Below, piece after piece: positions 36,357-51,446 of a DNA stretch of 64,000 nucleotides (the first letter of the stretch is position 1; every line of letters begins with the position of its first letter). Under the pieces are notes generated by a model, which worked only from the letters and a program-made list of their open reading frames with translations, was not told where the DNA came from and made no database searches. The DNA is from Anaerobaca lacustris (GTDB taxonomy: Bacteria > Planctomycetota > Phycisphaerae > Sedimentisphaerales > Anaerobacaceae). Where the stretch lies: NCBI RefSeq assembly GCF_030012215.1, contig NZ_JASCXX010000004.1, positions 1 to 64,000 of the forward strand, given 5' to 3'. The position numbers were made by a program, and so were the translations under genes.

Positions 36357-36701
36357 TTACTCCTTTTCGAACTCGATCTCATCCAACACCAAAGGGGCGT
36401 CGGGAAGCAATTCAAAGTCGTCGCCGGCGCAGCGCGGACATCGCGCATCCGATAAATCTATTGCGAATGCACTCTCGCACGCCCGGCATTTCGCCTGCAG
36501 CGGCTTGTGTTCGATCTCCAATGCCATGCCTTCGCACGGCGTTCCCTCGGCAATCGCTTCAAACGCGAAGCGAAGCACCTCATCATTGACCGCGTTGAGT
36601 CGGCCGCAACTCATCTTCGCGCGGACCGGCCGGCCGCCCTGCTTGTCCGCCTCCTGAAGGATCGCCTCGATCAAACCTTGCGCCACCGCCGTCTCGTGCA
36701 T
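36357..36701 (-). CDS. hypA: Hydrogenase nickel incorporation protein HypA
   Basis: Nickel metallochaperone of 114 residues. MHETAVAQGL gives the conserved N-terminal His2 nickel ligand. The zinc site is a pair of CxxC motifs: CRACESAF near 70 and CPRC near 87. Its start codon overlaps the hypE stop by one base (TGATG arrangement) and hypB begins 3 bases after its end, so it is translationally coupled. Confidence 0.96.
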   Translation of the reverse strand: MHETAVAQGLIEAILQEADKQGGRPVRAKMSCGRLNAVNDEVLRFAFEAIAEGTPCEGMALEIEHKPLQAKCRACESAFAIDLSDARCPRCAGDDFELLPDAPLVLDEIEFEKE

Positions 36702-37723
36702 CAGCAGATCCTTGGCAACTCACGTCCGTAGGGCATCTGCACGATCCGCTTGCCGCCGATCTTCGTGCGAAGCTCGACGAGCGGCGCGCCCTGCGACGCA
36801 ACCACCTCACCAATCAGGGCAGCGTCGCGGCCCAACGGATGGGAGCGACAAATGCTCAGGCACGCATCCGCCGTCGCCGGCGATACAACCGCCACGAATT
36901 TGCCCTCGTTGGCGATGTTCAGGACGTCGAAGCCAAGCATATCGGCGGCCGCCTGAACGGACGGCTTGATAGGAATGTCGGTGTCGCGAATCTCGATGCC
37001 GAAGTCGGCGCCCTCGACCATCTCGTTGAGTACGGCGGCCAGTCCTCCGCGCGTTGCATCCCGCATGAACTTGACGCCTCCGGCCTGCTCGAAAAGCCGG
37101 CACGTCAGGTCAGCCAGAGCGGCACAGTCGCTGGCCAATCGCGACTCGAATCGAATCCCCTCTCTCTGCGAGATGATCGTCATCCCGTGATCGCCGATCG
37201 TGCCATTGATGAGAATCCTGTCTCCGACCGCGATTCGGTCCAGTCCGGGATTCACACCCGGCAGCCGAATACCGATTCCGGCCGTGTTGATGAAAACCCC
37301 GTCGGCCGAGCCACGCTCCACGGTTTTGGTATCCCCCGTCACAATCGAAACGTGGCTCTCACGCGCCGTCCGGCCGATGCTCTCGAGAATTCTCTCCAGC
37401 AGTCCCATCTCGAAGCCTTCTTCGACGATCAGCGACAGCGTCAGGGCCACCGGTCTCGACCCGGCCACCGCCAGATCGTTGATCGTCCCACAGACCGCCA
37501 GCTTGCCGATGTCGCCGCCGTGGAAGAACAGCGGTTTGACCACGTAGCTGTCGGTCGTCAGGCAGATCGACGTCGATGCCAGCTCCAAACAGGCCGAATC
37601 GCCGAGCGACGACAAGGCCTCGTTCTTCAGGTGGGGCAGAATCAGTTCGCGAATGAGCTGACTGGTCAGTTGCCCACCGCCGCCGTGGGCCAGCAGGACT
37701 CTCTGCGGTTCATCGTGTGCCAT
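36701..37723 (-). CDS. hypE: Hydrogenase maturation protein HypE
   Basis: Dehydrates the thiocarboxamide on its own C-terminal cysteine to thiocyanate, giving the cyanide ligands of the Fe centre. 340 residues from ATG 37723, 8 bases after the hypD stop. In-frame codons upstream belong to hypD sequence. PurM/HypE motifs are LLAHGGGGQLTSQLI, TDSYVVKPLFFHGGDIGKLAVCGTINDLAVAGSRP, TGDTKTVERG and MRDATRGGLAAVLNE. The C-terminus ends PRIC, the required modification tail. Confidence 0.97.
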   Translation of the reverse strand: MAHDEPQRVLLAHGGGGQLTSQLIRELILPHLKNEALSSLGDSACLELASTSICLTTDSYVVKPLFFHGGDIGKLAVCGTINDLAVAGSRPVALTLSLIVEEGFEMGLLERILESIGRTARESHVSIVTGDTKTVERGSADGVFINTAGIGIRLPGVNPGLDRIAVGDRILINGTIGDHGMTIISQREGIRFESRLASDCAALADLTCRLFEQAGGVKFMRDATRGGLAAVLNEMVEGADFGIEIRDTDIPIKPSVQAAADMLGFDVLNIANEGKFVAVVSPATADACLSICRSHPLGRDAALIGEVVASQGAPLVELRTKIGGKRIVQMPYGRELPRIC

Positions 37724-37731
37724 CGCCGGCC

Positions 37732-38802
37732 CTAATCCCTTCTCCCGTATTTGTACCACGCAGCACAGGTGCCCTCCGAACTGACCATGCAGGGTCCGAC
37801 GGGCCTGTGCGGCGTGCACTGCGAGCCGAACAACGCGCACTGCATCGGTTCAATCAGCCCGCACAGGACTTCGCCGCACCGACATCCGCTGAGGTCTTCG
37901 CCCGGCTCATCGGTCAGGCCGAACCGCTTGAACCCATCGAACTCCCTATACCCTTCTTTCAGCACCAGCGTGCTCTTTTCTATCTTCCCAAGTCCGCGCC
38001 AGTACCCGTCGGCGTCGTCGAAACACTTGGCAATGATCCGCTGGGCGGCTGTGTTGCCTTGGTCGGTGACGACCGCGCTGTAGATTGACTTGAGTTCCGG
38101 CTTGCCTGCGCAGAGTTGCCGGCAGATCTCCGCCAGACCTTCGATGATCTGCAGCGGCTCGAAACCGGCCACGACGCAGGGCCGTCCGAAATCGTCGACG
38201 ATCTCCGCGAACGCGCCGGCGCCGATGATGACGCTGACGTGCCCCGGACAAAGAAACGCGTCGACGCGGTCGTTCATCCCGCTCAGCAGCGCGCGCATCG
38301 CAGGGAGGATGAGCTTGTGGCCGCTGAGGATGCAGAAGTTCTCGATCCCCTCTTCGGCCGCCTCCTTCACGACCACGGCGGTGGCCGGTGCGGTCGTCTC
38401 GAACCCGACCGCCACGAACACGACCGTCTTGTGCGGGTTGTCTCGGGCCAGTTGCAGCGCATCTTCGCTGCTAAGAACGATCCGGACATCGGCGCGGGCG
38501 GCGCGGGTCTCCAGCGATCCGGCCTTGCCCGGCACACGAATCATGTCTCCGTAGGTGGCGATGATGCAATCGTCGCGCTTCGTCAGCTCCAGAACGGCAT
38601 CGATATAGCCCTGATCGGTCACGCAGACCGGGCAGCCGGGCCCCGACAGGAGCTTGAGCCCCTCCGGCAGCGTGGAGCGGATGCCGCTGCGAAAGATCGC
38701 CACCGTGTGCGTGCCGCACACTTCCATAACGGTGATCGGCCGGCCCAGCGTTTGGCACGCCTCGCCGATCTGCTGCTGTGCTTTGGCGATCCTGTCGAAC
38801 AT
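37732..38802 (-). CDS. hypD: Hydrogenase maturation protein HypD
   Basis: Iron-sulfur scaffold on which, with HypC, the Fe(CN)2CO unit is built. 356 residues. Cysteine motifs are VMEVCGTHTVAIFRSGI (CGTHT), LLSGPGCPVCVTDQGYID, PCVVAGFEPLQI and the C-terminal SGCRCGEVLCGLIEPMQCALFGSQCTPHRPVGPCMVSSEGTCAAWYKYG with the [4Fe-4S] ligands. It starts 6 bases after hypC and leads into hypE. Confidence 0.97.
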   Translation of the reverse strand: MFDRIAKAQQQIGEACQTLGRPITVMEVCGTHTVAIFRSGIRSTLPEGLKLLSGPGCPVCVTDQGYIDAVLELTKRDDCIIATYGDMIRVPGKAGSLETRAARADVRIVLSSEDALQLARDNPHKTVVFVAVGFETTAPATAVVVKEAAEEGIENFCILSGHKLILPAMRALLSGMNDRVDAFLCPGHVSVIIGAGAFAEIVDDFGRPCVVAGFEPLQIIEGLAEICRQLCAGKPELKSIYSAVVTDQGNTAAQRIIAKCFDDADGYWRGLGKIEKSTLVLKEGYREFDGFKRFGLTDEPGEDLSGCRCGEVLCGLIEPMQCALFGSQCTPHRPVGPCMVSSEGTCAAWYKYGRRD

Positions 38803-38808
38803 ATGGCC

Positions 38809-39051
38809 TTATCCCGAGACCCGATTCTGCGTCTTCTCGAAGTTCTCGATCTCGGCGAACAGCTCCCACGTCTTCTTGGCCTCTTCTTCATCGACCCGCG
38901 CGATGGCAAAACCGGCGTGCACCAGGACAACGTCGCCCAGCTTCACGTCGGGCAGCAGCGTCGTCTTGGCCGCAAAGCGATTGCCCATCGCATCGACCGT
39001 CGCACGATCCTCATCCAACTCCACAATTCTTGCCGGTATGGCTAGGCACAT
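38809..39051 (-). CDS. hypC: Hydrogenase assembly chaperone HypC
   Basis: 80 residues from ATG 39051, chosen because the processed N-terminus must begin MCLAIPARIVE with Cys2, which carries the Fe ligand group. Longer in-frame starts bury it. Conserved VDAMGNRFAAKTTLLPDVKLGDVVLVHAGFAI is the OB-fold core. A candidate minus-strand promoter lies about 75 bases upstream, so it is the first gene of hypCDEAB. hypF sits about 1.5 kb further upstream, beyond the islet. Confidence 0.95.
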   Translation of the reverse strand: MCLAIPARIVELDEDRATVDAMGNRFAAKTTLLPDVKLGDVVLVHAGFAIARVDEEEAKKTWELFAEIENFEKTQNRVSG

Positions 39052-39124
39052 CTTTCGTCGCTCGTCTGTCGTGAACCAACGTTCGGCCCCGAAAACCCAC
39101 TGACGAGGCTCAGGCCGAATCGCT

Positions 39125-39153
39125 ATGGTATCCGCGACATCCGCGCGCGTCAA
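39125..39153 (-). promoter_or_regulatory. Candidate promoter of hypCDEAB
   Basis: On the minus strand, -35 TTGACG (39153-39148), 17-base spacer, -10 TACCAT (39130-39125). It would restore transcription of hypCDEAB downstream of the opposite-strand islet. Confidence 0.5.
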
Positions 39154-39160
39154 CGCAGTC

Positions 39161-39189
39161 TTGACACGGTGCCAGCAAGTGCTTACCCT
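39161..39189 (+). promoter_or_regulatory. Promoter of the MNT gene
   Basis: Perfect -35 TTGACA (39161-39166), 17-base spacer, -10 TACCCT (39184-39189), about 50 bases upstream of the nucleotidyltransferase start. Confidence 0.6.
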
Positions 39190-39240
39190 CAATCTCGGTG
39201 TTGGCTACGGAAGACATGACTTTTCAGGGTGTCATAGTCC

Positions 39241-39531
39241 ATGGGTATCAGACAAGTCCTACAGGCCAGACGGGACGAGATCGTCGAGATCGCAGCAAGA
39301 CACGGCGCACACAATCTTCGCCTGTTCGGCTCGGTCGCTCGCGGCCAGGACACGGCAGACAGCGATATAGACCTCCTGGTCGCCACCGGCCCAACCACGA
39401 GTTCGTGGTTCCCGGCAGGGCTTATCCTTGACCTGGAACAGATTCTCGGGCGACGCGTCGAAATCGTGACGGAGAAGGGGCTCAATCCCCACCTGCGAGA
39501 GAAGGTGCTTGGCGAGGCGGTCCCGTTATGA
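39241..39531 (+). CDS. MNT-type minimal nucleotidyltransferase (MntA antitoxin-like)
   Basis: 96 residues of the Pol-beta nucleotidyltransferase fold. The signature LRLFGSVARGQDTADSDIDLLVATG has the G-S-x10-D-x-D metal motif. In HEPN/MNT toxin-antitoxin pairs this protein AMPylates or otherwise neutralises the HEPN RNase encoded immediately downstream. Its stop overlaps the next ATG (ATGA), the usual coupled arrangement, but the HEPN frame ends after 18 codons. The MNT gene looks intact, with its own promoter. It sits on the opposite strand to the hyp genes. Confidence 0.85.
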   Translation: MGIRQVLQARRDEIVEIAARHGAHNLRLFGSVARGQDTADSDIDLLVATGPTTSSWFPAGLILDLEQILGRRVEIVTEKGLNPHLREKVLGEAVPL

Positions 39532-39584
39532 AGGACGACCGCATCTATTGCGCACAGGACGTTTGCTCCGGCGGACCCACATGA
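39528..39584 (+). pseudogene. Truncated HEPN (DUF86-type) toxin remnant
   Basis: The ATG overlaps the MNT stop. The frame reads MKDDRIYCAQDVCSGGPT and stops. The first seven residues match the usual start of DUF86/HEPN partners (M-x-K-D-D-R-x-Y), then similarity is lost, so the toxin body is deleted. This is a recognition from a very short stretch. Confidence 0.5.
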
Positions 39585-39616
39585 CACAGTAGCGATCAAT
39601 TGCGAGGATACCTCCT

Positions 39617-40504
39617 ATGTGTATTCCCTTTGGGTTCTATCAGGGCAATCGTTCCGAGTACTTGGCGATTCCGGCCCTCAGCAAACTGGGGTTCACAATC
39701 CCGATTCCACGCCAAGAGGACCATTTCGGCTTGGACTTCATAGTGCATCTCGCCAAGAATGTGAACAATACGGTGACCCCTACGGGCCGAGCGTTCGGTA
39801 TCCAGATCAAATCGGACAAGACCCCTCTCGCCTTCGACACTCAGGACAAGAGAGACTGTCTGTACAACTCTTCTTTGCCATTCTTCTTGGGGGTGATCAG
39901 CCGGGCGGACCTCACTCTCACAGTGTACAATACACTGAACAGGTTGTATTTCTTCAGGGAAGGCGCAACGCAGGATTTCACAATAGCGTTTGAGGATGGA
40001 CAAGAGGGCCTGCCAAAGCCAGACCTCGATGACGGGATCGTGAGAACGGGGAGACCAATACTTGAGGTGAGCATCGCAGAACCTCCTACGCATGAGAAGA
40101 GACTCAAGGAGATTGAAGTCCTCCAATCTACGATGCGGCGTTGGGTGAACCTCGAAAACAAGAATCTGTCCTTGAAGGAACAGGGGATTGGCTTGCTGTT
40201 CTGGCCATCCAAGTATACAACAAATGAACCTCTGGCGGAGGAGGTCAAGCTGGAGACGCACACCTTCACCAAGATTGCCCGTCCGGATGGTCTACCGCGT
40301 GTATGCAGAGCAACAGAAGAAGCGTTGACCTCGCTTTCGTTTTACCTCCGCAAACTGCCGCGGGACGATCAAGCGAACAATACTGCTCAGAAAATGGATG
40401 AGATGGTCCAGAAGGTGGAGTCACTCAGAGATGAGTGCGAGAAGCTCCGTGCGCAGTGGGCCATTGACGCGCGACCGTCCGTAACGCCTTCGGACGGTCG
40501 GTAA
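39617..40504 (+). CDS. DUF4365-like protein, possible PD-(D/E)XK nuclease fold
   Basis: 295 residues from ATG 39617. The N-terminal 160 residues follow the DUF4365 plan: EYLAIPALSKLGFTIPIPRQEDHFGLDFIVHL, then RAFGIQIKSDKTPLAF and LPFFLGVISRADLTLTVYNT. The Asp in GLDF and the Q-x-K in GIQIKSD would be nuclease-like active-site residues. The C-terminal part is a charged region ending in a coiled-coil-like helix (AQKMDEMVQKVESLRDECEKLRAQ). Base composition is visibly more AT-rich than the flanking hyp genes, and with the MNT remnant it suggests acquired DNA. Nuclease or defence function is inference. Confidence 0.7.
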   Translation: MCIPFGFYQGNRSEYLAIPALSKLGFTIPIPRQEDHFGLDFIVHLAKNVNNTVTPTGRAFGIQIKSDKTPLAFDTQDKRDCLYNSSLPFFLGVISRADLTLTVYNTLNRLYFFREGATQDFTIAFEDGQEGLPKPDLDDGIVRTGRPILEVSIAEPPTHEKRLKEIEVLQSTMRRWVNLENKNLSLKEQGIGLLFWPSKYTTNEPLAEEVKLETHTFTKIARPDGLPRVCRATEEALTSLSFYLRKLPRDDQANNTAQKMDEMVQKVESLRDECEKLRAQWAIDARPSVTPSDGR

Positions 40505-40534
40505 GGCCAACCTCCGGGAGCCACTGGCAAGGTC

Positions 40535-42832
40535 CTACTTGTCTGCCATCCGGGCGGCGACGGCGGCCTGGCCGAGAGCGATGCCGCCGTCGTTGGCCGG
40601 GACGTCCCGGTTGCATAATACCGCAAAGCCGGCCTCTTTGAAACGGCGAATCAGGCGATCGGCAAGATAGCGGTTGCAGAAGACGCCCCCGCTGGATGCG
40701 ACGACGTCCAGATCGGTCTTCCGTCGGGCCACCTGCGCCACGGCCAGCAGGGCTTCGACGAGCGTGTTGTGGAACTTCGCAGAGAGCCTGCCCACATCGG
40801 CGCCCTGTCGGGCCTCTTCCACGATTTGTCGGATCGTCATACGCAGGTCGATCCTGACCGGTTCACCCTCGATCAGATCGAACGGATAGCAGGCGTCGAC
40901 GTGCCAATCGGCGACCGATTCGAGCGCCATGGGCAATTGGGCATCAAAATGATTGTATATACCCAAGCCGAGAACAGCGGCGACAGCATCGAAGACGCGG
41001 CCCAGGCTCGACGTGCTGACCGTATTGACGCCCTTCTCGATCTGCTCAAGGATCATACCAAGCCTTGCCCGCTCCGGCTCGATGCGTTCGAGCAGCCAGG
41101 CGAAGTCGTCGAGGCGGAAGCCGTCGCCATACGCTTGACGCAGCAGACTCAGGAGAGGTCGAACCGCCTCTTTGCTCGCACGATCGGCGCCTGCGAGCGG
41201 GTAGTAGTCGAGATGACCGAATCGTTCGAACTGCGTCAGCGAAGCGATCATGCACTCACAGCCCCAGATGGCGCCGTCGGTGCCGTAGCCGGTGCCATCG
41301 CACTCGATACCGATGACCGGCCCATCATGTCCGTGCTCGACCAGCACCGAGGCGATGTGGGCCCAGTGGTGCTGGATCGGGATGACCTTCACGTTGGAAA
41401 GCGATCGAGCATAATGGGTGGAAAGGTAGCCGGGGTGAAGATCGCAGGCGACCACCTCCGGCTGCACCTCGAAAAGCCCGCGCAAGTGCTCGATGGAACC
41501 AACGTAGTGCCGATAGACCTCGGCGTCTTCGAGGTCACCGATATGCTCGCTGAGGATGAGCTGGTTCTGCTTGACCAGGCAGAACGTATTCTTCAGGTCG
41601 GCGCCAACCGCAAGAATGTCCGGACCCGCGCTGCGATCGATCAGGATCGGCGTCGGCACATACCCTCTTGCGCGGCGCAGCGGGACCGGCTCGTCGTCGA
41701 TCAGGTGGATGATGGAATCGTCCACCTGCCGGTGGATCTGCCGGTCGTGCATGACGAAGGCATCGGCCACCTCGCCCAATCGTTGCAGCGCGACGTGGTT
41801 CTTGCAGATCAGCGGCTCGTCCGAGAGGTTCGCACTGGTCATCACGAGGACGTCGAGCCCTTCGGCGAAGAGCAATGCGTGCAGCGGTGCATAGCAGAGC
41901 ACAAAGCCGAATGTGCCGACCCCTTCGGCCACGGACGGCGCGATCGGCGTGCCCGGCCTCTTCGGCAGCAGCACGATCGGCGCGACCGGACTTCTCAGGA
42001 CCTCCTCGGCCGCGCCATCGACGACGGCGTACGTGCGGATCGCATCGACCGAAGCGGCCATCATGGCAAAGGGTTTGTGGTCGCGACGTTTGCGCTGCCT
42101 CAGTCGGACCACCGCCTGCTCGTTCAGCGCATCGACGGCCAAGTGAAACCCGCCGACGCCCTTGATAGCGAGGATCTTTCCAGCGCGCAGCAACCGGGCC
42201 GCTTCGGACAGCACACCGTCGGTCCCGGTTCGCAGGACAGTGCCGCCGGGTCCCAGCAACTGGATGCTCGGCCCGCACGCGGGGCATGCAACGGGTTGAG
42301 CGTGAAACCGCCGGTCGCAGATGTCGCCGTGCTGAGCCGCGCACCGATCGCACATCGGGAAGATCGCCATCGTCGTATTCGGGCGATCGTATGGAATGGT
42401 CCTGAGGATGGAGTATCGAGGCCCACAGTTGGTGCAGTTGATGAAGGGATAACGATAGCGGAAATCGTTCGGGTCGCCCAATTCTGCCAGACAATCCCGG
42501 CAGGTGGCGATATCGGCCGTCACCTGAGACATGGCCTCTCCGGCTGAATCGCTCCGGCCGATGCTGAAGACCTCCTGCCCCTCGACCGGCTCGACATCTA
42601 CTCTTATACACGACTGAATCGAGGCCAGAGGCGGCTTGTCCGGCCGGGATTGCAGGCGGCGAAGGAACTCGTCGATGCGGTCTTTCCGGCCCTGAAGCTC
42701 GACCGTGACCCCTTGCGTATCGTTGTAGACCGTGCCCGCCAGGCCCAGCTCCCTCGCCAGCCTGTAGACGGCGGGCCGAAATCCCACACCCTGGACCCGG
42801 CCGGTGATTCGTATGCGTTCTCGCTTGACCAA
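40535..42832 (-). CDS. hypF: Carbamoyltransferase HypF
   Basis: Makes the cyanide precursor of the hydrogenase Fe site by carbamoylating HypE. The start is set to TTG 42832: GGAAGGA is 9 bases upstream, the acylphosphatase domain begins at once (VKRERIRITGRVQGVGFRPAVYRLA), and the longer frame runs through tRNA-Ala. 765 residues, the normal size. In order: acylphosphatase, two zinc fingers (CRDC...CTNCG; CDRC...CPACG), YrdC-like domain (ILAIKGVGGFHLAVDA, PLRRARGYVPTP), then the Kae1-like carbamoyltransferase (VIGIECDGTGYGTDGAIWGCE, HHWAH, SSGGVFCN). It is separated from hypC by the islet. Confidence 0.96.
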   Translation of the reverse strand: MVKRERIRITGRVQGVGFRPAVYRLARELGLAGTVYNDTQGVTVELQGRKDRIDEFLRRLQSRPDKPPLASIQSCIRVDVEPVEGQEVFSIGRSDSAGEAMSQVTADIATCRDCLAELGDPNDFRYRYPFINCTNCGPRYSILRTIPYDRPNTTMAIFPMCDRCAAQHGDICDRRFHAQPVACPACGPSIQLLGPGGTVLRTGTDGVLSEAARLLRAGKILAIKGVGGFHLAVDALNEQAVVRLRQRKRRDHKPFAMMAASVDAIRTYAVVDGAAEEVLRSPVAPIVLLPKRPGTPIAPSVAEGVGTFGFVLCYAPLHALLFAEGLDVLVMTSANLSDEPLICKNHVALQRLGEVADAFVMHDRQIHRQVDDSIIHLIDDEPVPLRRARGYVPTPILIDRSAGPDILAVGADLKNTFCLVKQNQLILSEHIGDLEDAEVYRHYVGSIEHLRGLFEVQPEVVACDLHPGYLSTHYARSLSNVKVIPIQHHWAHIASVLVEHGHDGPVIGIECDGTGYGTDGAIWGCECMIASLTQFERFGHLDYYPLAGADRASKEAVRPLLSLLRQAYGDGFRLDDFAWLLERIEPERARLGMILEQIEKGVNTVSTSSLGRVFDAVAAVLGLGIYNHFDAQLPMALESVADWHVDACYPFDLIEGEPVRIDLRMTIRQIVEEARQGADVGRLSAKFHNTLVEALLAVAQVARRKTDLDVVASSGGVFCNRYLADRLIRRFKEAGFAVLCNRDVPANDGGIALGQAAVAARMADK

Positions 42833-42970
42833 AACGAGCGATCCTTCCCTATTATATAGATGGGGCCGAGCCAAGGTCCGAGAATCCCACAGGCCATCGG
42901 CGGCCGCCGGCCCCCAGAGTCTATTTGCAGCCGGCCCCGCTGCAAGGGCAAAATATGCGCGAAAAATCGC

Positions 42971-42999
42971 TTGCCTGGCCGTAGCGGGTGTGCTAACAT
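42971..42999 (+). promoter_or_regulatory. Promoter of tRNA-Ala
   Basis: -35 TTGCCT (42971-42976), 17-base spacer, -10 TAACAT (42994-42999), placing the transcript start a few bases before the tRNA. Confidence 0.55.
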
Positions 43000-43009
43000 A
43001 TTGCGAAAC

Positions 43010-43082
<73 letters not shown>

Positions 43083-43244
43083 TTTTCCGTGTTCTGCCCG
43101 CTTTTTCCGTCCGCTTGTCGTCCCTGGTCACATGTCTGCCGAGGCGGCAAATGCGTCCGAGCCGCCAATTCCGGCTTGAACTGCTCCAGCCCGGTTCGTA
43201 TGCTTTGTGAAAAATCCACGGACCGACTCAGAAGGAGCACGCCT

Positions 43245-44069
43245 ATGACCGCGAAGCAAGACCGCACACCCGCCCAGCAGAATCTCCTCCGAACCCTTGC
43301 CGTGGTCCTGGTCGGTGTCATATGCTCGACTGGCTGCGCATCGCAGGCGGGCAAGTCCGCCGAAGGCCGCTGGATTTCCCTGTTCAACGGCAAGGACCTC
43401 AAGGGATGGCACCCCAAGATCACCGGCTACGACCTCGACGACAACTTCGGCAACACGTTCCGCGTCGAAGATGGGCTCCTGAAGGTCCGCTACGACCAGT
43501 ATGAGAAGTTCGACGGCAAGTTCGGGCACTTGTTCTATGAGACGCCCTTTTCGCACTACCGCATGCGCGTGGAATACCGTTTCGTCGGAGAGCAGACGCC
43601 GGGCGGCCCCGGCTGGGCCTTCCGCAACAGCGGCATCATGTTCCACTGCCAGCCGCCCAAGAGCATGCGAAAGGACCAGGACTTTCCCGTCTCCATCGAG
43701 GCGCAGATGCTGGGCGGCAACGGCACCGACAAGCGCTCGACCGCCAATTTGTGCACGCCGGGAACGCACATCGTCATGAACGATCGACTCATCACGCAGC
43801 ACTGCATCAACTCGAAATCAGAAACGTATCATGGCGACCAGTGGGTGACGATGGAGATCGAGGTCCACGGAAACGAGAAGATCAGGCACCTCGTCAACGG
43901 CGAGGTCGTGCTCGAATACGAGCGGCCCCAGCTCGATGACGGCGACGCGGACGCCCGGAAGTTGATCAAGGATGGCAACACGACGCTCGGCGCGGGTTAT
44001 GTTGCCTTGCAGGCCGAAAGCCACCCGCTGGAGTTTCGCAAGGTGGAATTGATGCCTCTGGAGAAGTGA
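43245..44069 (+). CDS. DUF1080 (3-keto-disaccharide hydrolase-like) lipoprotein
   Basis: 274 residues from ATG 43245, with GAAGGAG 7 bases upstream. N-terminal lipoprotein signal (LRTLAVVLVGVICSTGC, lipid Cys about 31). The DUF1080 jelly-roll domain covers most of the rest: WISLFNGKDLKGWHPK, FRVEDGLLKVRYDQYEKFDGKFGHLFYETPFSHYRMRVEYRF, NSGIMFHC, EAQMLGG, and VEVHG-type WVTMEIEVHGNEKIRHLVNGEVVLEYERP, ending LEFRKVELMPLE. Some members hydrolyse 3-keto-glycosides made by Gfo/Idh-type dehydrogenases, and two such dehydrogenases occur in the window. Periplasmic or surface location. Confidence 0.9.
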   Translation: MTAKQDRTPAQQNLLRTLAVVLVGVICSTGCASQAGKSAEGRWISLFNGKDLKGWHPKITGYDLDDNFGNTFRVEDGLLKVRYDQYEKFDGKFGHLFYETPFSHYRMRVEYRFVGEQTPGGPGWAFRNSGIMFHCQPPKSMRKDQDFPVSIEAQMLGGNGTDKRSTANLCTPGTHIVMNDRLITQHCINSKSETYHGDQWVTMEIEVHGNEKIRHLVNGEVVLEYERPQLDDGDADARKLIKDGNTTLGAGYVALQAESHPLEFRKVELMPLEK

Positions 44070-45518: not shown

Positions 45519-46637
45519 TCATGGCGCCCCGGTCAGCAGATGATCGTAGAATGCCGTCGTCCGCGCCACCAAACTCCTGTAAGAAAGCTTCTGCTCGGCC
45601 CAGACTCTGGCGGCGGCGCCAAGTCTACGGCGCCTCTCAGGACGGCGCAAGAGGTCGTCGAGCACACGCGCCAGGGCGACAGGGTCAGCGGTCGGAGTCA
45701 CAACCGCCGTTTCACCGTCGCGCAAATGGATGGACTCCCCCGGCTTGGTGAATCCAGCTGAAACCACGCAGAGACCACAACTCATGGCCTCATACATGAC
45801 GGATCCACCCGACAGACTCACCAGTACGTCGAGCGAGTTGAGTACGGAGGGCATGTCGTGCCTCCTGCCGGTGAAGATGAACTGCCCATTCAAGCCACTG
45901 GCCGCAACCAGACGATTCACGCGGGCCCCGTAGTCGTGATTGCGGACCTCCCCGATGAGTATGAAGCGTACCCCCGCGGCCCAGCGACGTTTCACTTCAA
46001 TCGCGGTCCGGATGAATTCCAATTGCCGCTTGGCCGGCTCAATGCGCCCGACCAGACCAACATTGAGCACGGGACCTGACCCGCGAGGCCTGGACAGGTC
46101 CACAGGTCGGGCCTCGGACGGCTTGAAACGCTCAATGTCGACGGCATCCTCAATCTGAACCATCCGATCAGCATCGACACGGACCTCTCGCAAGACACGA
46201 GTGATCTTCTCAGAGATGGAAATCACACCCGTCGCAGCACGCAACCGGTGCTTCCGCACCCCTCGTCGCGTGACCGGTCCGCGGACATGCACCACTGAAG
46301 GCACCTGCAATCGCCAGCGCAGCCAATTCAGATAGTTGCCCAGCCACATGTCGGATGCGTGGATGCAAACGGGCTCCGACCGCCTGGCCAACGCGACGAG
46401 TTTCTCCGCATCCCAATAGCGGCACAAGCCGTTTCGCAGCTTCCTCCATGGACGCAACGACAGCACCTCGGTGCGAATCCCGGCAGACCTCAACTCCTCG
46501 ACGACCTCGCCTTCTGTCATGCAGACGACCGTCGGGTCGTATGAGGCGTCCAGACCTCTTAGCAGAAGCAGAAGCTGGCGGTGACTGCCGCCAATGTTGC
46601 CTCCCTTGGACAAATACAGAATTCTTCTTGCACACAT
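45519..46637 (-). CDS. GT4-family glycosyltransferase
   Basis: 372 residues of the GT-B fold. N-terminal Rossmann half (ILYLSKGGNIGGSHRQLLLLLRGL). C-terminal GT4 half has VGLVGRIEPAKRQLEFI, FILIGEVRN, FTGRRHDMPSVLNSLDVLVSLS and the E-x7-E type nucleotide-sugar site GSVMYEAMSCGLCVVSAG. It transfers a sugar from an NDP- or polyprenyl donor, probably for cell-surface glycan. It is divergent from the ATP-grasp gene across a 311-base gap, which links it by position to the ATP-grasp/radical SAM cluster. The start ATG 46637 lacks a strong ribosome site. Confidence 0.88.
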   Translation of the reverse strand: MCARRILYLSKGGNIGGSHRQLLLLLRGLDASYDPTVVCMTEGEVVEELRSAGIRTEVLSLRPWRKLRNGLCRYWDAEKLVALARRSEPVCIHASDMWLGNYLNWLRWRLQVPSVVHVRGPVTRRGVRKHRLRAATGVISISEKITRVLREVRVDADRMVQIEDAVDIERFKPSEARPVDLSRPRGSGPVLNVGLVGRIEPAKRQLEFIRTAIEVKRRWAAGVRFILIGEVRNHDYGARVNRLVAASGLNGQFIFTGRRHDMPSVLNSLDVLVSLSGGSVMYEAMSCGLCVVSAGFTKPGESIHLRDGETAVVTPTADPVALARVLDDLLRRPERRRRLGAAARVWAEQKLSYRSLVARTTAFYDHLLTGAP

Positions 46638-46948: not shown

Positions 46949-48055
46949 ATGCGCAGAAGACTGCTTCACAGAGCCCGGCAGATCATCGATGTCGCCAGAT
47001 ACGCCCGGCGAGCCTCGCCCGCATATCGCGTCAGCGCGATCACCCTGTTTGCACGGACCGTCCCCATCTGCCTGAAGCACCAATTCAGCGGGGCCGAGGC
47101 ATATCGCCTGGGCCTCTTCGATCCGACCACCCAGGCGGCCGACCTGAGCCACTACTGCAGTAGAAAGCGCCTTACGAAGATCCAGAGGTCTCTCAACCCT
47201 CCCTCTCTGGCGCCGCTGTTGCGAAACAAGGCCATTTTCTATCGGTTCTGCCTGGCCCACGGCATTCCCGTCCCCGCCCTGTACGCTGTCGTCTTTGGGC
47301 CGACTCGGGGCTGGACGTACCGCGATCGGGCCGCCGCCGGGATCGAGCAGTGGGCCACATTCCTGGAGCGCGATCTGCCCGCCGAGTTTGTCATCAAGCC
47401 GGTGGAGGCCGCGTTCGGCCACGGCGTTATGCTGTTTCGCCGACAGGATGACCGTTTCATCGATCCGGCCGGAACGCTATTCCGTGCCGCTGCGCTCTGC
47501 GAGAGCCTTTGCACCAACGGGCGGCACGACGGATTCCTGATCCAGGAACGTCTGCACAACCACCCACAACTGCTTGAACTGACTGGTGTCGAATACCTTC
47601 AGACGGTCCGCATGACCACTCTGGTTGACGCCGATCATCGGGCCCATGTGATCCATGCCGCGTGCAAACTGATCGCCGGATCGAATGTCACCGACAACTT
47701 CCATGGCGGAATCACCGGGAATATCCAGGCCTGCGTCGACCTTCGGGACGGTCGGCTGTTTCGTCCGGTCACCGCCTCGCCCGATACGCCGGGCTACAAC
47801 ACACTGCGAAAGCACCCAAACACGGGATTGGACATTGAGGGCTTTCACCTGCCACTCTGGGATCAGGCGTGCACGCTGGTCCGTAAGGCCGCCGTGCAAT
47901 TTCTCCCCGTCAGAACCATCGGCTGGGACGTCGCGATGACCCCCAGTGGCCCGATAATCGTCGAGGGAAACATCTGGTGGAACCCTCCCAACCAGCACCG
48001 GAACCTGCACACGATCCTACAGACCATCCGCGACCTCTGTCCCTTCCTGGCGTAA
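46949..48055 (+). CDS. Sugar-transfer-associated ATP-grasp protein, copy 1
   Basis: 368 residues, ATPgrasp_ST (PF14397)-like. Basic N-terminus, then SGAEAYRLGLFDP, YCSRKRLTKIQRSLNPP, LLRNKAIFYRFCLAHGIPVPALYAVV and the ATP-grasp core EFVIKPVEAAFGHGVMLFRR. It continues with GFLIQERLHNH, GVEYLQTVRMTTLVD and IGWDVAMTPSGPIIVEGNIWWNPPNQ, where the Asp, Glu and Asn bind Mg-ATP. ATP-grasp enzymes join a carboxylate to an amine, thiol or other nucleophile. This subfamily is found in polysaccharide clusters. It is clearly paralogous to the gene at 50204-51307. The substrate is unknown. No signal peptide. Confidence 0.88.
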   Translation: MRRRLLHRARQIIDVARYARRASPAYRVSAITLFARTVPICLKHQFSGAEAYRLGLFDPTTQAADLSHYCSRKRLTKIQRSLNPPSLAPLLRNKAIFYRFCLAHGIPVPALYAVVFGPTRGWTYRDRAAAGIEQWATFLERDLPAEFVIKPVEAAFGHGVMLFRRQDDRFIDPAGTLFRAAALCESLCTNGRHDGFLIQERLHNHPQLLELTGVEYLQTVRMTTLVDADHRAHVIHAACKLIAGSNVTDNFHGGITGNIQACVDLRDGRLFRPVTASPDTPGYNTLRKHPNTGLDIEGFHLPLWDQACTLVRKAAVQFLPVRTIGWDVAMTPSGPIIVEGNIWWNPPNQHRNLHTILQTIRDLCPFLA

Positions 48056-48071
48056 CCGGCCCCGCAACCAG

Positions 48072-48190
48072 ACACGAAACGGCGTGCGTGGAAAAAGGAG
48101 CGAAGCAGGCTTTGCGGACCACCGCAACAGCAGGTACAATCTCAGCGTACAAAGAGCAGCCCTGTTTTGTGTTTTCACAGCCGAGAACCT
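48072..48190 (+). repeat. Duplicated promoter element, copy 1
   Basis: About 118 bases, roughly 80 percent identical by eye to 51329-51446. It includes a GCGAAGCAGGCTTTGC palindrome, the promoter TTGCGG/TACAAT, the block TACAATCTCAG and a shared CAC(A/G)GCCGAGAAC end. It begins 16 bases after the ATP-grasp 1 stop. Confidence 0.85.
48112..48140 (+). promoter_or_regulatory. Promoter of the Dus-like/radical SAM/ATP-grasp operon
   Basis: -35 TTGCGG (48112-48117), 17-base spacer, -10 TACAAT (48135-48140). It is conserved in the second copy of the element, which supports it. Confidence 0.7.
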
Positions 48191-48191
48191 C

Positions 48192-49124
48192 GTGAAGAGA
48201 TGCATTGGAACTGTGGGCTTGGAAAACAGGCTCATTCTGGCGCCGATGGGGGGCATGTTGCGGCCTTCGGTCCGTTTGACCTATCGGCGGCTCGGCGCCG
48301 CGATGACGTGCATCGGCGTCATCGACGCCCGAGCCGTAGCCAGAGCCGAAAGCGATGAACTGATCAATATCTTAGGCAGGCGCGAAGTCACATATGAGGA
48401 GGAACGGCCGGTCAGCGTCCAGCTCATCGGCGCCAACGTTGACGAAGTCGCCGCTGCCGCCAATCGGATACAACGATTCGCCAGCGTGATTGACCTGAAT
48501 TGCAGCGGCCCTCTCCAACGCCTGATCGACCAGGGCTATGGAGCAGCCGATCTGCTGCGCGATCCGGCTTTCATCAAGGAGATGGTCCACGCAGTCGTCG
48601 AGAGAACTCGCCTTCCCATCACTGTGAAGATCCGGATCGGCATGGAGGGCCCCGATGTGGACGTCGTGGGCATCGCGCAGAATTGCCAGGAGGCCGGGGC
48701 CGCCGCCATAGCGGTACATGCCCGTTTCGTTCGGCAGATGTACTTCGGACCCGCACACTGGGAGTGGATCAAGACCGTCAAAGAAAATGTGGATATCCCC
48801 GTCGTCGGCAACGGCGCCGTGCACTCGGCTTTCGATGCGCAAGCCATGCTCGAACGGACGGGGTGCGACTTCGTCATGATCGGCACGGGCGCATTCATCA
48901 ATCCGCTGATCTTCCTTCAAACCAACGAGCTTCTGGAGACGGGCCACTGCCCAACGATCAGTAACACGCGAACGTTGCTGCGATTCTTCCGGGAGTACTT
49001 TGCCTCCGCCAGGAGGATGGAATCCAGGGGACTCGTGAGATTTCTGCGAAGCTCCTGTAAGAACTTTCTCAAGGTCCGGTCGTTCATGCAGGGAATTCAA
49101 AGCGGCCGTGTCACACTCAAGTAG
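48192..49124 (+). CDS. Divergent Dus-family (dihydrouridine synthase-like) flavoprotein
   Basis: 310 residues from GTG 48192 (VKRCIGTVGLENRLILAPMGG is the family N-terminus). An FMN-binding TIM barrel with LAPMGGMLRPSVRL, SVQLIGANVDEV, VKIRIGMEG (Lys146), AIAVHARFVRQMYFGPAHWEWIK (His176), IPVVGNGAVHSA and MIGTGAFINPLIF. In Dus enzymes the motif D-x-N-x-G-C-P carries the catalytic cysteine. Here residues 101-107 are DLNCSGP, so the Cys is two positions early and Gly takes its place. The FMN sites look preserved. It could therefore reduce or oxidise something other than tRNA uridine. The radical SAM gene starts 7 bases later. Confidence 0.82.
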   Translation: MKRCIGTVGLENRLILAPMGGMLRPSVRLTYRRLGAAMTCIGVIDARAVARAESDELINILGRREVTYEEERPVSVQLIGANVDEVAAAANRIQRFASVIDLNCSGPLQRLIDQGYGAADLLRDPAFIKEMVHAVVERTRLPITVKIRIGMEGPDVDVVGIAQNCQEAGAAAIAVHARFVRQMYFGPAHWEWIKTVKENVDIPVVGNGAVHSAFDAQAMLERTGCDFVMIGTGAFINPLIFLQTNELLETGHCPTISNTRTLLRFFREYFASARRMESRGLVRFLRSSCKNFLKVRSFMQGIQSGRVTLK

Positions 49125-49131
49125 GACGCAT

Positions 49132-50187
49132 ATGGCCGATCGTGAAGAGGGATGGATCGTCCGGCTGCCAGAAGCCGTACGCGACGTATCGTACCGAATC
49201 AGGCTCCTGCTCGGCAAGGGCCCCAAGGTGCGCATGCTGTATCTCGAAGTGACGCATCGCTGCAATGCCCGTTGCATCACCTGTTACACGGGTGCGGGAA
49301 AGGAGAAAGACGATGCGCTCACGTTCGAGGAACAGAAATCGGTGGTCCAGCAGGCCAGGCAGCTCGGCGCCCGCACCGTATCGGTGAGCGGCAGCGGTGA
49401 GCCGCTGCTATGTCCTCACCTCTTCGATCTGATCGATTTCGTCCGTCTGCAGAACATGCAAGTGGTCATGTTCACCAACGGCACGACGGTTGACCGAGCT
49501 TGTGCCGAGCGACTGATTCACAACAACGTGATCACCTACTTCAAGTTGTTCAGTCTCGATCCGGGTACGTTCGACCGGATGATGGGCAAGGCGAACGCCT
49601 ATGAGTGGGTCTCGCACTCGTACCCGTACGGCGATTCCAGCAAGAACGTCTGCCTGCCCAGCGGTCTGAAGTGCCTGCTCGACGCCCAGGAGGCCGCCGG
49701 GACCAAGGGCCTGGTCAGGGTCGAGTCGCTGATCACCAGGCTGAACCGCGCCACGCTGCCGGACGTGGCGCGGCTCTGCAGAGACTTGGACTTGACTCTG
49801 CACCTGGAAACCCCTGTCTTTGCGGGGCGTGCGATCGAGAACTATGCGGACATTGCTCTGCACAGCGATGAATACGAGAACCTCTACCACGAACTCGTGG
49901 CCATCTTGGGACAGGAGTATTTCAGCGAGCTTCGAGCCCATCCGTGTCCGGTGGAGCGCAATCCGACGGTCTGGACGAACGGCGACATCGGGCTTTGCAG
50001 CAGTCGACCGGCCCATGTCGGGAATGTGCGGCAAGCCTCTCTCAAGAGCTTGTTCCACAGGGCGCTAATGCAGAAACGCAAAGAAGATCGTCACCTCACT
50101 CCATCCAGCGGTGAAGGGCGATATTTTCGCACGTGTCCCGCGCGACAGTACTACCAACTGCAGCACGGGATCCCATGCGACTACTGA
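49132..50187 (+). CDS. Radical SAM protein with SPASM-like C-terminus
   Basis: 351 residues from ATG 49132, 7 bases after the Dus-like gene. The [4Fe-4S] motif THRCNARCITC (C44, C48, C51) is canonical Cx3Cx2C, and SVSGSGEPLLCPHL matches the SAM-binding GGEP position. The barrel continues through VVMFTNGTTV and LVRVESLITRLN. The C-terminal part has cysteines in HPCPVERNPTVWTNGDIGLCSS and FRTCPARQYYQLQHGIPCDY, as in SPASM or twitch domains that hold auxiliary clusters. Such enzymes modify peptides, proteins or sugars. The arrangement between a flavoprotein and an ATP-grasp gene suggests one multi-step modification. Target unknown. Confidence 0.9.
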   Translation: MADREEGWIVRLPEAVRDVSYRIRLLLGKGPKVRMLYLEVTHRCNARCITCYTGAGKEKDDALTFEEQKSVVQQARQLGARTVSVSGSGEPLLCPHLFDLIDFVRLQNMQVVMFTNGTTVDRACAERLIHNNVITYFKLFSLDPGTFDRMMGKANAYEWVSHSYPYGDSSKNVCLPSGLKCLLDAQEAAGTKGLVRVESLITRLNRATLPDVARLCRDLDLTLHLETPVFAGRAIENYADIALHSDEYENLYHELVAILGQEYFSELRAHPCPVERNPTVWTNGDIGLCSSRPAHVGNVRQASLKSLFHRALMQKRKEDRHLTPSSGEGRYFRTCPARQYYQLQHGIPCDY

Positions 50188-50203
50188 CCGCAGGAGAGCG
50201 ACC

Positions 50204-51307
50204 TTGCGAAAGCTATTACGCCGGCTTCATCGAAAATCGCATCGGTTCGGCGAGATTGTGGTTTTCTGGCGTCGGGCGAATCCACTGTGGCACTGGAAGT
50301 CCGTCTCGGCGTTTCGGCGCGCCTTGCGCGTCTGCAAGAGAGACCGATTCGAGCCCGCCGAGGCGTTTCGCCTGGGCCTGTTCCGTCCGCCCCCGGCCCA
50401 CGATGGGCCGTCACCCTATGTCAGCCGTAAACGCTTGACGAAAGCCCAGGAAGCCCTGAATCCTCCCGGCTGGGCACCCCTGCTGAAGAACAAGGACCTG
50501 TTCTATCGATACAGCGCTGCTCTGGGCATACCTGTCCCGCAATTGTACGCAGTCATTCAAGGATCCGCACCAGATTGGTCTTCTGTGGGCCGCGCGATCG
50601 GGACACGAGATGACTGGAAGACCTTCTTCGAACGCCACCTGCCGACCGAATTCGCCGTCAAACCAGCGATCGGGGCCTACGGAAAAGGGTTCAATGTCTA
50701 CCGAAAGATGGACGGCGGCTACGTCGATGCCTCCCATACTCGTCTGGAGTTCAGCGACTTATACGATGCGCTCGTTTCGGCGGGCCATGACCGATACGTG
50801 ATCCAGGAGCGCCTTCAGAGCCATTCGGAACTGATACGCCTCAGTGGGACCGAGGCATTGCAGACCGTCCGAATGATTACCCTCGTGGACAGCGCCGGGG
50901 ATGCACACATCCTGCACGCCCATTTGAAGGTCATCGAGGCCGAGGAAATCGTCGACACCCTGATCGACGGCCTGACCGGCAACGTCGAGGCACCGGTAGA
51001 CCTGGAGTCCGGCCGCCTGAAATCCGCCAATCGAATTCCAGACACAGGCACCGGCGTTGTCACGATCGAGGTCCACCCCAAGACGAGGATTCCATTCGCT
51101 GAGTTTGCACTGCCGTTCTGGCCACAGGCGCGGGATTTGGTGCGGCAGACCTCACAGCACTTCTTACCTTTGCGAACCATCGGCTGGGACGTCGCTCTGA
51201 CTCCGGCCGGTCCGGTGATCGTCGAGGGAAACGTCTGGTGGGACCCGCCCAACCAGCATCATGCCCTGCAAGCCATTCTGGGGGCTATCCGCGAGCTTTG
51301 TCCGTGA
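50204..51307 (+). CDS. Sugar-transfer-associated ATP-grasp protein, copy 2
   Basis: 367 residues from TTG 50204: AGGAGA at 50192-50197 is well placed, and the in-frame ATG at 50111 lies inside the radical SAM gene. Paralog of the gene at 46949-48055: RFEPAEAFRLGLFRP, YVSRKRLTKAQEALNPP, LLKNKDLFYRYSAALGIPVPQLYAVI, EFAVKPAIGAYGKGFNVYRK, YVIQERLQSHSEL, GTEALQTVRMITLVD and IGWDVALTPAGPVIVEGNVWWDPPNQ. The same catalytic residues are kept in both copies, so both are probably active with different acceptors. It lies 16 bases after the radical SAM gene. Confidence 0.88.
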   Translation: MRKLLRRLHRKSHRFGEIVVFWRRANPLWHWKSVSAFRRALRVCKRDRFEPAEAFRLGLFRPPPAHDGPSPYVSRKRLTKAQEALNPPGWAPLLKNKDLFYRYSAALGIPVPQLYAVIQGSAPDWSSVGRAIGTRDDWKTFFERHLPTEFAVKPAIGAYGKGFNVYRKMDGGYVDASHTRLEFSDLYDALVSAGHDRYVIQERLQSHSELIRLSGTEALQTVRMITLVDSAGDAHILHAHLKVIEAEEIVDTLIDGLTGNVEAPVDLESGRLKSANRIPDTGTGVVTIEVHPKTRIPFAEFALPFWPQARDLVRQTSQHFLPLRTIGWDVALTPAGPVIVEGNVWWDPPNQHHALQAILGAIRELCP

Positions 51308-51328: not shown

Positions 51329-51446
51329 ACACGAGACGGCGGGCGTGGGAAAAAGGGCAAAGCAGGCTTTGCAGGCGACTGCGACAGCGGGTACAATCTC
51401 AGTGTGCAAAAAGCGGCCCTGCTCTGTTCTTTCACGGCCGAGAACA
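51329..51446 (+). repeat. Duplicated promoter element, copy 2
   Basis: Direct repeat of 48072-48190, beginning 22 bases after the ATP-grasp 2 stop. It keeps the GCAAAGCAGGCTTTGC palindrome and the promoter hexamers, while spacer bases differ. Confidence 0.85.
51369..51397 (+). promoter_or_regulatory. Promoter of the TAT-exported Gfo/Idh gene
   Basis: -35 TTGCAG (51369-51374), 17-base spacer, -10 TACAAT (51392-51397), inside copy 2 of the duplicated element. Confidence 0.7.

What the first reader, a model, noticed from the sequence alone, without database searches (positions are those of the whole stretch)
46949..51307. Unrecognised modification cluster: ATP-grasp / Dus-like flavoprotein / radical SAM / ATP-grasp
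Seen: two paralogous sugar-transfer-type ATP-grasp genes flank a Dus-like FMN barrel and a radical SAM protein with extra C-terminal cysteines. The last three genes have gaps of 7 and 16 bases and share one promoter. A GT4 glycosyltransferase faces the cluster. Known: ATP-grasp enzymes form amide-like bonds, radical SAM/SPASM enzymes remodel peptides or sugars, and Dus proteins reduce C=C bonds. I know of no described pathway with this set. Inference: a multi-step modification of a surface glycan, peptide or nucleoside-like molecule, with each ATP-grasp ligating a different group.
Basis: partly seen in the sequence, partly recalled or inferred. Interest (0 to 1): 0.8.

Follow-up and report, generated by a model that had tools for sequence, protein, structure and literature searches.

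The report
Sugar-ligase cluster with altered flavoenzyme
A small gene cluster in an uncultured planctomycete, shared with unrelated bacteria, pairs a sugar-transfer enzyme and peptide-bond-type ligases with a radical enzyme and a tRNA-type flavin enzyme that has lost its usual catalytic residue; it probably builds a decorated sugar compound not yet described.

Summary
The genes are real and at the stated places. The set is not a one-genome accident. Full-length orthologs of the radical SAM (rSAM) gene were found in six genomes from three bacterial groups (Phycisphaerae, Desulfuromonadales-type bacteria, Elusimicrobia). It lies close to ATPgrasp_ST genes in 5 of 6, to the GT4 gene in 4 of 6, and to the Dus-like gene in 3 of 6, with a Dus remnant in a fourth. 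Pelobacter sp. UBA6812 has GT4 facing Dus, rSAM and three ATP-grasp genes in one run. The "flanking" ATP-grasps are a local rearrangement: one congener has GT4-ATPgrasp1 and another GT4-Dus-rSAM-ATPgrasp2 at this site; the window has both. The Dus-like protein has lost the catalytic cysteine (3 of 3 cluster copies; 0 of 20 other Dus examined) but is under purifying selection, so tRNA dihydrouridylation is unlikely. Most likely reading: the GT4 makes a glycoside, ATP-grasps amidate it, and the rSAM and Cys-less flavoprotein tailor it. Substrate and product are unknown. My paper searches found no description of this set. Rated a new variant of a known kind.

The parts
45519..46637 (-). GT4-type glycosyltransferase, divergent from the cluster; core partner of the ATP-grasp genes
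   Evidence: PF00534/PF13439; relatives beside the cluster in G003, G267 and Pelobacter
46949..48055 (+). ATPgrasp_ST ligase 1 (AG1); absent from the site in G003, present in G001
   Evidence: PF14397 161 bits; synteny
48072..48188 (.). Copy 1 of a duplicated upstream block (holds TACAAT), now in front of the Dus-like gene
   Evidence: 82% identical to copy 2; alignment
48192..49124 (+). Dus-like FMN-barrel protein, 310 aa, with the catalytic cysteine replaced and the C-terminal domain shortened
   Evidence: PF01207 185 bits, DusB equivalog 211 bits under its cut-off 293.3; alignments
48498..48512 (+). NCSGP motif where the Dus enzymes examined have N-x-(G/A)-C-P
49132..50187 (+). Radical SAM protein with a reduced, twitch-like C-terminal domain
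   Evidence: PF04055; AlphaFold2 model pLDDT 87.7; best structural match SkfB, Z 24.5
49261..49284 (+). CxxxCxxC motif of the SAM-binding [4Fe-4S] cluster
   Evidence: invariant in 6 of 6 orthologs
49945..50178 (+). Putative auxiliary-cluster cysteines C272, C289 (C-x11-G-x4-C), C335 and C349
   Evidence: first three invariant in 6 of 6, C349 in 5 of 6
50204..51307 (+). ATPgrasp_ST ligase 2 (AG2), TTG start
   Evidence: PF14397 146 bits; model pLDDT 86.6; RimK/ArgX/Ddl-like, Z about 14
51329..51445 (.). Copy 2 of the duplicated block, in front of the Gfo/Idh/MocA-type gene; not part of the cluster

Best explanation
A horizontally moving glycoconjugate-tailoring cassette. The GT4 attaches a sugar to an unknown acceptor. 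One to three ATPgrasp_ST enzymes then activate a carboxylate with ATP and join it to an amine, as the ATP-grasp amidoligase of the Campylobacter capsule does on glucuronic acid. The radical SAM/twitch enzyme then abstracts hydrogen from the amidated sugar or its aminoacyl group, to form a bond, desaturate or epimerise. The Cys-less Dus-like flavoprotein reduces or oxidises a C=C or C-N bond of the same product. Shown: the genes, their co-occurrence, kept ATP-grasp and radical-SAM motifs, loss of the Dus cysteine, purifying selection. Inferred: every reaction, their order, the product, and the horizontal transfer (from the scattered distribution). GT4 plus ATP-grasp is the core; Dus plus rSAM is an accessory module.
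For: Co-occurrence in G003, G267 (other family) and Pelobacter sp. UBA6812, and rSAM plus three ATP-grasps in a Desulfuromonadaceae MAG. In a tree with 13 other homologs the six rSAMs sit on one side of a branch (support 95/98). GT4 lies next to an ATP-grasp of this subfamily in 10 of the 12 order-sample genomes holding one. In the order, the 3 genomes with the full-length rSAM are all among the 12 ATP-grasp genomes of 159 searched (hypergeometric 3e-4, relatedness ignored). ATP-grasp residues K153, D329, E341, N343 are kept in all ten subfamily rows. Campylobacter precedent: PMC11800379, passages read. Cys loss in 3 of 3 cluster Dus, with pN/pS 0.23.
Against: No sugar or acceptor is known. 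The Campylobacter ligase is described in that paper as a TupA-like ATP-grasp, not ATPgrasp_ST. Elusimicrobia keeps the rSAM without a neighbouring ATP-grasp, GT4 of this family or Dus-like gene; the Desulfuromonadaceae contig (10 kb) has no Dus-like gene or GT4; in G267 the Dus-like gene is a remnant. So the four families are not an obligate unit. In G281 three ATP-grasps of the subfamily have no GT4 of this family within the 14 kb fetched around each, and the G086 copy has none in 8 kb. No flippase, polymerase or exporter appears among the 18 window proteins scanned with Pfam. The rSAM tree carries a tool warning about long branches. Several of these genomes are draft metagenome assemblies, so missing genes and the remnant could in part be assembly effects.
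Confidence: 0.5

Rival explanations
1. Soluble small-molecule or cofactor pathway: the GT4 makes a glycoside (as MshA/BshA-type GT4s do for thiol cofactors; recalled), the ATP-grasps add amino acids non-ribosomally, and rSAM and flavoprotein mature it; no surface polymer is involved.
For: No polymerase, flippase or exporter among the window proteins scanned or the Pelobacter and G267 neighbours scanned. GT4 profile matches include mycothiol MshA and BshA, far below their cut-offs. ATP-grasp model closest to RimK, ArgX and D-Ala-D-Ala ligases.
Against: GT4 and ATP-grasp genes lie beside a second glycosyltransferase in G116, and the Elusimicrobia rSAM lies 3-6 kb from GT2, GT4 and ABC-2 exporter genes, which suits a glycan.
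Confidence: 0.25
2. RiPP pathway: the rSAM modifies a ribosomal peptide and the ATP-grasps are peptide ligases of the microviridin or pheganomycin type (recalled names).
For: Closest solved structures of the rSAM model are the RiPP maturases SkfB (Z 24.5) and SuiB (Z 23.0).
Against: Among 96 intergenic ORFs of 18-110 aa at the six loci, no two from different loci matched at E 1e-3. G003 leaves only 139 bases between GT4 and the Dus gene. The rSAM has about 30 residues before its core, little room for a leader-binding domain.
Confidence: 0.08
3. A tRNA or other nucleic-acid modification island: the Dus-like enzyme still makes dihydrouridine or a related base and the others extend it.
For: PF01207 over its cut-off and residues K146 and H176, shared with other Dus, kept.
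Against: Catalytic Cys lost in 3 of 3; the C-terminal domain lacks about 25 residues and the Arg after (M)IG is Thr; the three genomes with an intact cluster copy also have a housekeeping Dus with its Cys; the constant partner of the ATP-grasps is a GT4.
Confidence: 0.07
4. A chance gathering of unrelated genes at a variable site between the Hyp and Gfo/Idh genes.
For: The site differs among congeners and the Dus-like gene is missing or broken in 3 of 6 rSAM loci.
Against: Same order Dus-rSAM-ATPgrasp2, with divergent GT4, in Pelobacter, at 45-58% identity.
Confidence: 0.1

Closest known systems
ATPgrasp_ST (PF14397, 'Sugar-transfer associated ATP-grasp')
   Same: Both window ATP-grasps pass the cut-off; GT4 neighbour as the family name implies
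   Different: Dus-like and rSAM partners, and two or three paralogs in tandem; I saw only the name of the Pfam entry, not its text
Campylobacter jejuni capsule amidoligase Cj1438 (TupA-like ATP-grasp fused to a GT2), PMC11800379, passages read
   Same: Glycosyltransferase paired with an ATP-grasp that amidates a sugar carboxylate
   Different: Different ATP-grasp branch and GT family; no rSAM or flavoprotein named in the passages read
DusB tRNA-dihydrouridine synthase
   Same: FMN barrel; 6ei9, named tRNA-dihydrouridine synthase B (from E. coli as I recall), is the best solved relative (E 6e-45)
   Different: Catalytic Cys lost, shortened C-terminal domain, below the DusB equivalog cut-off
SkfB / SuiB / MoaA / BlsE radical SAM enzymes
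   Same: SAM barrel plus a C-terminal domain aligned over most of its length
   Different: 13-21% identity; the CX2CX5C run of a full SPASM domain is absent; no shared precursor peptide found
Mycofactocin pathway (recalled: MftC rSAM, MftD FMN barrel, MftF glycosyltransferase)
   Same: rSAM plus FMN-barrel flavoprotein plus glycosyltransferase
   Different: rSAM far below TIGR03962 cut-off (64.8 vs 265); no shared small ORF; ATP-grasps instead

Membership tests
tRNA-dihydrouridine synthase (DusB) | Catalytic Cys in N-x-(G/A)-C-P | tested here: not met
   G, S and G at that column in 3 of 3 cluster copies; Cys in 8 of 8 housekeeping Dus and 12 of 12 next-best class hits
tRNA-dihydrouridine synthase (DusB) | NCBIfam DusB equivalog cut-off | tested here: not met
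   211 bits against 293.3
tRNA-dihydrouridine synthase (DusB) | FMN-binding TIM barrel | tested here: met
   PF01207 185 bits; K146 and H176 kept. FMN binding itself untested
tRNA-dihydrouridine synthase (DusB) | C-terminal RNA-binding helical domain | tested here: inconclusive
   about 25 residues shorter in the alignments; no structure made
Radical SAM superfamily | CxxxCxxC and SAM barrel | tested here: met
SPASM-domain radical SAM | PF13186 cut-off and the CX2CX5C(X2-3)C run | tested here: not met
   16.6 bits against 21.5; run absent in the six, while several distant relatives show CX2CX5CX2C
ATPgrasp_ST (PF14397) | Curated cut-off and ATP/Mg residues | tested here: met
   161 and 146 bits against 31.4; K153, D329, E341, N343
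ATPgrasp_ST (PF14397) | Association with sugar transferase | tested here: met
   GT4 adjacent in 10 of 12 genomes of the order sample
RiPP pathway | Precursor peptide gene in the cluster | tested here: not met
   no small intergenic ORF shared among the six loci at E 1e-3; precursor genes elsewhere in the genomes not tested
Mycofactocin | MftC equivalog score | tested here: not met
   64.8 bits against 265
Mycofactocin | MftA precursor peptide | tested here: inconclusive
   no shared small ORF at the loci; the MftA model itself was not searched

The most novel reading that the evidence does not exclude
The cluster makes an undescribed redox-active glycopeptide-like cofactor or natural product by a mycofactocin-like logic, with ATP-grasp ligases in place of a ribosomal precursor: sugar by the GT4, aminoacyl units by two or three ATP-grasps, then radical SAM and a flavin barrel that has given up its proton-donor cysteine for a new, perhaps dehydrogenating, reaction. 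It moves between phyla.
Probability: 0.12. Interest if true: 0.8.

Novelty: new variant of a known kind. Interest (0 to 1): 0.5.

Why it matters
It gives a defined, recurring set (GT4, ATPgrasp_ST, radical SAM/twitch, Cys-less Dus-like) with loci in more than one bacterial phylum, so an orphan chemistry can be tested by expression. The Dus-like enzyme would be a case of a tRNA-modifying flavoenzyme fold recruited to small-molecule or glycan chemistry through loss of its catalytic acid. The natural alleles at one site (with and without the Dus-rSAM-ATPgrasp2 module) separate the core from the accessory module.

Tried and rejected
Chance gathering: set aside because of the Pelobacter locus. RiPP: no shared small ORF. 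Dispersed repeat for the duplicated block: in six genomes of the genus, the window's own included, only the two window copies matched over more than 100 bases; the other hits were 91 bases at 72% in G003, at the same syntenic place, and pieces of 22-39 bases in G002 and G005. That call also missed the G001 copy, which is visible in the direct alignment. Plasmid carriage: 65 plasmid records match the rSAM, all under 60% identity; the 8 rows shown are 21-32%. Viral carriage: one distant match, 34% over residues 30-120. ATP-grasp against PDB sequences: no match at E 1. Ladderane or aryl-polyene link: the nearest other rSAMs (25-30% identity to the window protein) lie, where I looked, among ORFs whose starts look like ketosynthase, ACP and exporter genes (my reading of ORF starts, no Pfam run). 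Of the eight rows that I labelled FAS in the tree, the neighbourhood of G1122 was not looked at and that of G677 was unclear. I do not carry that function over, because the window clade is separate and no ketosynthase or ACP gene was found beside it. Papers: searches found nothing; one gave two papers that look unrelated (listing only); one gave three Dus papers, of which I opened one, PMC11162810, and saw one passage; one gave PMC11800379 (passages read); PMC2649909 and PMC9821293 seen in the listing only. The library is open-licence PMC only. In some searches the row W_Gfo was read one base out of frame, so its matches there are not evidence; synteny rests on DNA.

Rows chosen by hand: A9 uses 13 of the 22 rSAM candidates plus the six cluster members. 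In one search the first 60 residues of the Pelobacter third ATP-grasp were cut. In one search its start was assumed.
Full report
What is there. The window holds GT4 (45519-46637, -), ATPgrasp_ST 1 (46949-48055), a Dus-like flavoprotein (48192-49124), a radical SAM protein (49132-50187) and ATPgrasp_ST 2 (50204-51307), followed by a Gfo/Idh/MocA-type gene. Pfam names the ATP-grasps 'Sugar-transfer associated'. Codon changes against congeners show purifying selection on all five (pN/pS 0.23-0.33).

Distribution of the radical SAM gene. Matches stronger than 1e-100: 2 of 89 genomes of the family, 3 of 397 of the class sample, 3 of 161 of the order and 1 of 392 of the phylum sample. These counts include the window's own genome, and the samples overlap. 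The named-genome scan confirmed seven loci: five at 51-79% identity and two archaeal ones at 24-25%. The other three are Pelobacter sp. UBA6812, a Desulfuromonadaceae MAG and Elusimicrobia GWA2_56_46. In the order of the Pelobacter genome 2 of 136 have it; in the Elusimicrobia phylum sample 1 of 198. So it is rare and scattered over distant groups. In a tree with 13 other homologs the six sequences sit on one side of a branch (support 95/98), and against the eight nearest relatives they are one side of a branch in 100% of bootstrap trees; the tool warns of long branches there. The scatter suggests horizontal transfer, which I did not test with species trees.

Neighbourhoods of the six. Window: GT4 | AG1, Dus, rSAM, AG2. 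G003: GT4 | Dus, rSAM, AG2. Pelobacter: GT4 | Dus, rSAM, AG2, AG3, AG1 (gaps of 42, 3, -13 and 13 bases within the run, the AG3 start being assumed). Desulfuromonadaceae: rSAM, AG2, AG3, AG1, without GT4 or Dus-like gene on a 10-kb contig. G267: AG, GT4, a Dus remnant (N- and C-terminal pieces only, at L066 8132-8370), rSAM. Elusimicrobia: rSAM alone, with GT2, GT4 (not of this family) and ABC-2 exporter genes 3-6 kb away. AG labels follow best matches and the tree, where AG3 is well supported (100/99), AG2 weakly (65/47, 95% of bootstrap trees) and AG1 is not one group.

The GT4 link. Of 159 genomes of the order searched with the AG1/AG2 profile, 12 have a member (E <= 1e-45). A GT4 of the same family lies beside at least one of them in 10 of these 12 (G000, G001, G003, G012, G065, G080, G116, G267, G436, G448; in G080 and G436 the ATP-grasp match is a fragment). 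It is not near the three copies of G281, nor the G086 copy, which sits at a contig end. In G116 a second glycosyltransferase gene lies beside them. GT4 plus ATP-grasp is therefore the wider unit, and Dus plus rSAM ride on it.

Why the ATP-grasps flank the other genes. Three congeners share the site between the same neighbours. G001 has GT4 | AG1 and then the Gfo gene; G003 has GT4 | Dus, rSAM, AG2 and then the Gfo gene; the window has both modules. The last 200 bases of the two window ATP-grasp genes are 71% identical, against 58% for the earlier parts. The block behind them (48072-48188 and 51329-51445, 82%) occurs twice in the window but once, in more diverged form and before the Gfo gene, in the other two. 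The simplest reading is recombination through the ATP-grasp 3' ends, which put a copy of the Gfo upstream block before the Dus gene. The direction of change is not shown.

The Dus-like protein. The nearest solved relative is a DusB (6ei9, E 6e-45). The catalytic cysteine of N-x-(G/A)-C-P is G, S and G in the window, G003 and Pelobacter copies. It is present in 8 of 8 housekeeping Dus of eight genomes and in 12 of 12 next-best matches in the class. In the class sample the Cys-less form was found only in the window genome and G003 (E about 1e-194; next 8e-54; 397 genomes). The C-terminal domain is about 25 residues shorter and the Arg after (M)IG is Thr. That this cysteine is the proton donor in Dus enzymes is recalled knowledge.

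The radical SAM protein. The AlphaFold2 model (19-row alignment, pLDDT 87.7, pTM 0.85) is closest to SkfB (Z 24.5, rmsd 3.1, 275 aligned), SuiB (23.0), anSME, viperin, MoaA and BlsE. As I recall, these act on peptides, nucleotides and a nucleoside sugar, so structure alone does not name the substrate. The conserved cysteines (C272, C289, C335, and C349 in 5 of 6) fit a single auxiliary cluster of twitch type, not a full SPASM domain; cluster binding is inferred.

The ATP-grasps. The model of AG2 (14-row alignment, pLDDT 86.6) matches ArgX, RimK and D-Ala-D-Ala ligases (Z 13-14), amide- or ester-forming ligases working through acyl phosphates (recalled). Residues K153, D329, E341 and N343 are kept in all ten AG1/AG2-type rows.

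Mechanism. I commit to a GT4-made glycoside, amidated by ATP-grasps and tailored by rSAM and the Cys-less flavoprotein (confidence 0.5). The experimental precedent for the first half is the Campylobacter jejuni capsule, where an ATP-grasp domain amidates glucuronic acid with serinol phosphate or ethanolamine phosphate before the next sugar is added (PMC11800379, passages read). The second half rests on the neighbourhoods alone. Results against: the set is complete only in three genomes, the Dus-like gene is missing or broken in three of six, the promoter scan shows nothing above chance, and nothing names the substrate.

Novelty. No paper in the open-licence library held dihydrouridine synthase, radical SAM and ATP-grasp together (and with 'gene cluster'). 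Subscription literature is not covered. Each family is known and glycosyltransferase plus ATP-grasp is a known logic, so I call it a new variant of a known kind.

Noticed in passing
L132 7964-9016; L133 7188-8222; L147 7816-8640; L148 7390-8193: The nearest other radical SAM subfamily, with a fuller SPASM-type cysteine set, lies among ORFs whose starts look like ketosynthase, ACP and exporter genes, in Pelobacter and in a Planctomycetota family; possibly ladderane or aryl-polyene-type pathways.
   Followed up: partly
L066 8132-8370: Remnant of the Dus-like gene in G267: the N- and C-terminal ends remain and the core is gone, between an intact GT4 and an intact radical SAM gene.
   Followed up: partly
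window 48072-48188 and 51329-51445: Duplicated upstream block that gives two neighbouring operons similar leader DNA, a likely trace of recombination in ATP-grasp 3' ends.
   Followed up: yes
window 36701-43423: Hydrogenase-maturation genes (AIRS-type, HypD, HypF) upstream of the cluster.
   Followed up: no
L136 7305-9664 and on: G267 has a second GT4 locus with an AG1-like and an AG3-like ATP-grasp and no radical SAM gene matched in the locus fetched.
   Followed up: partly
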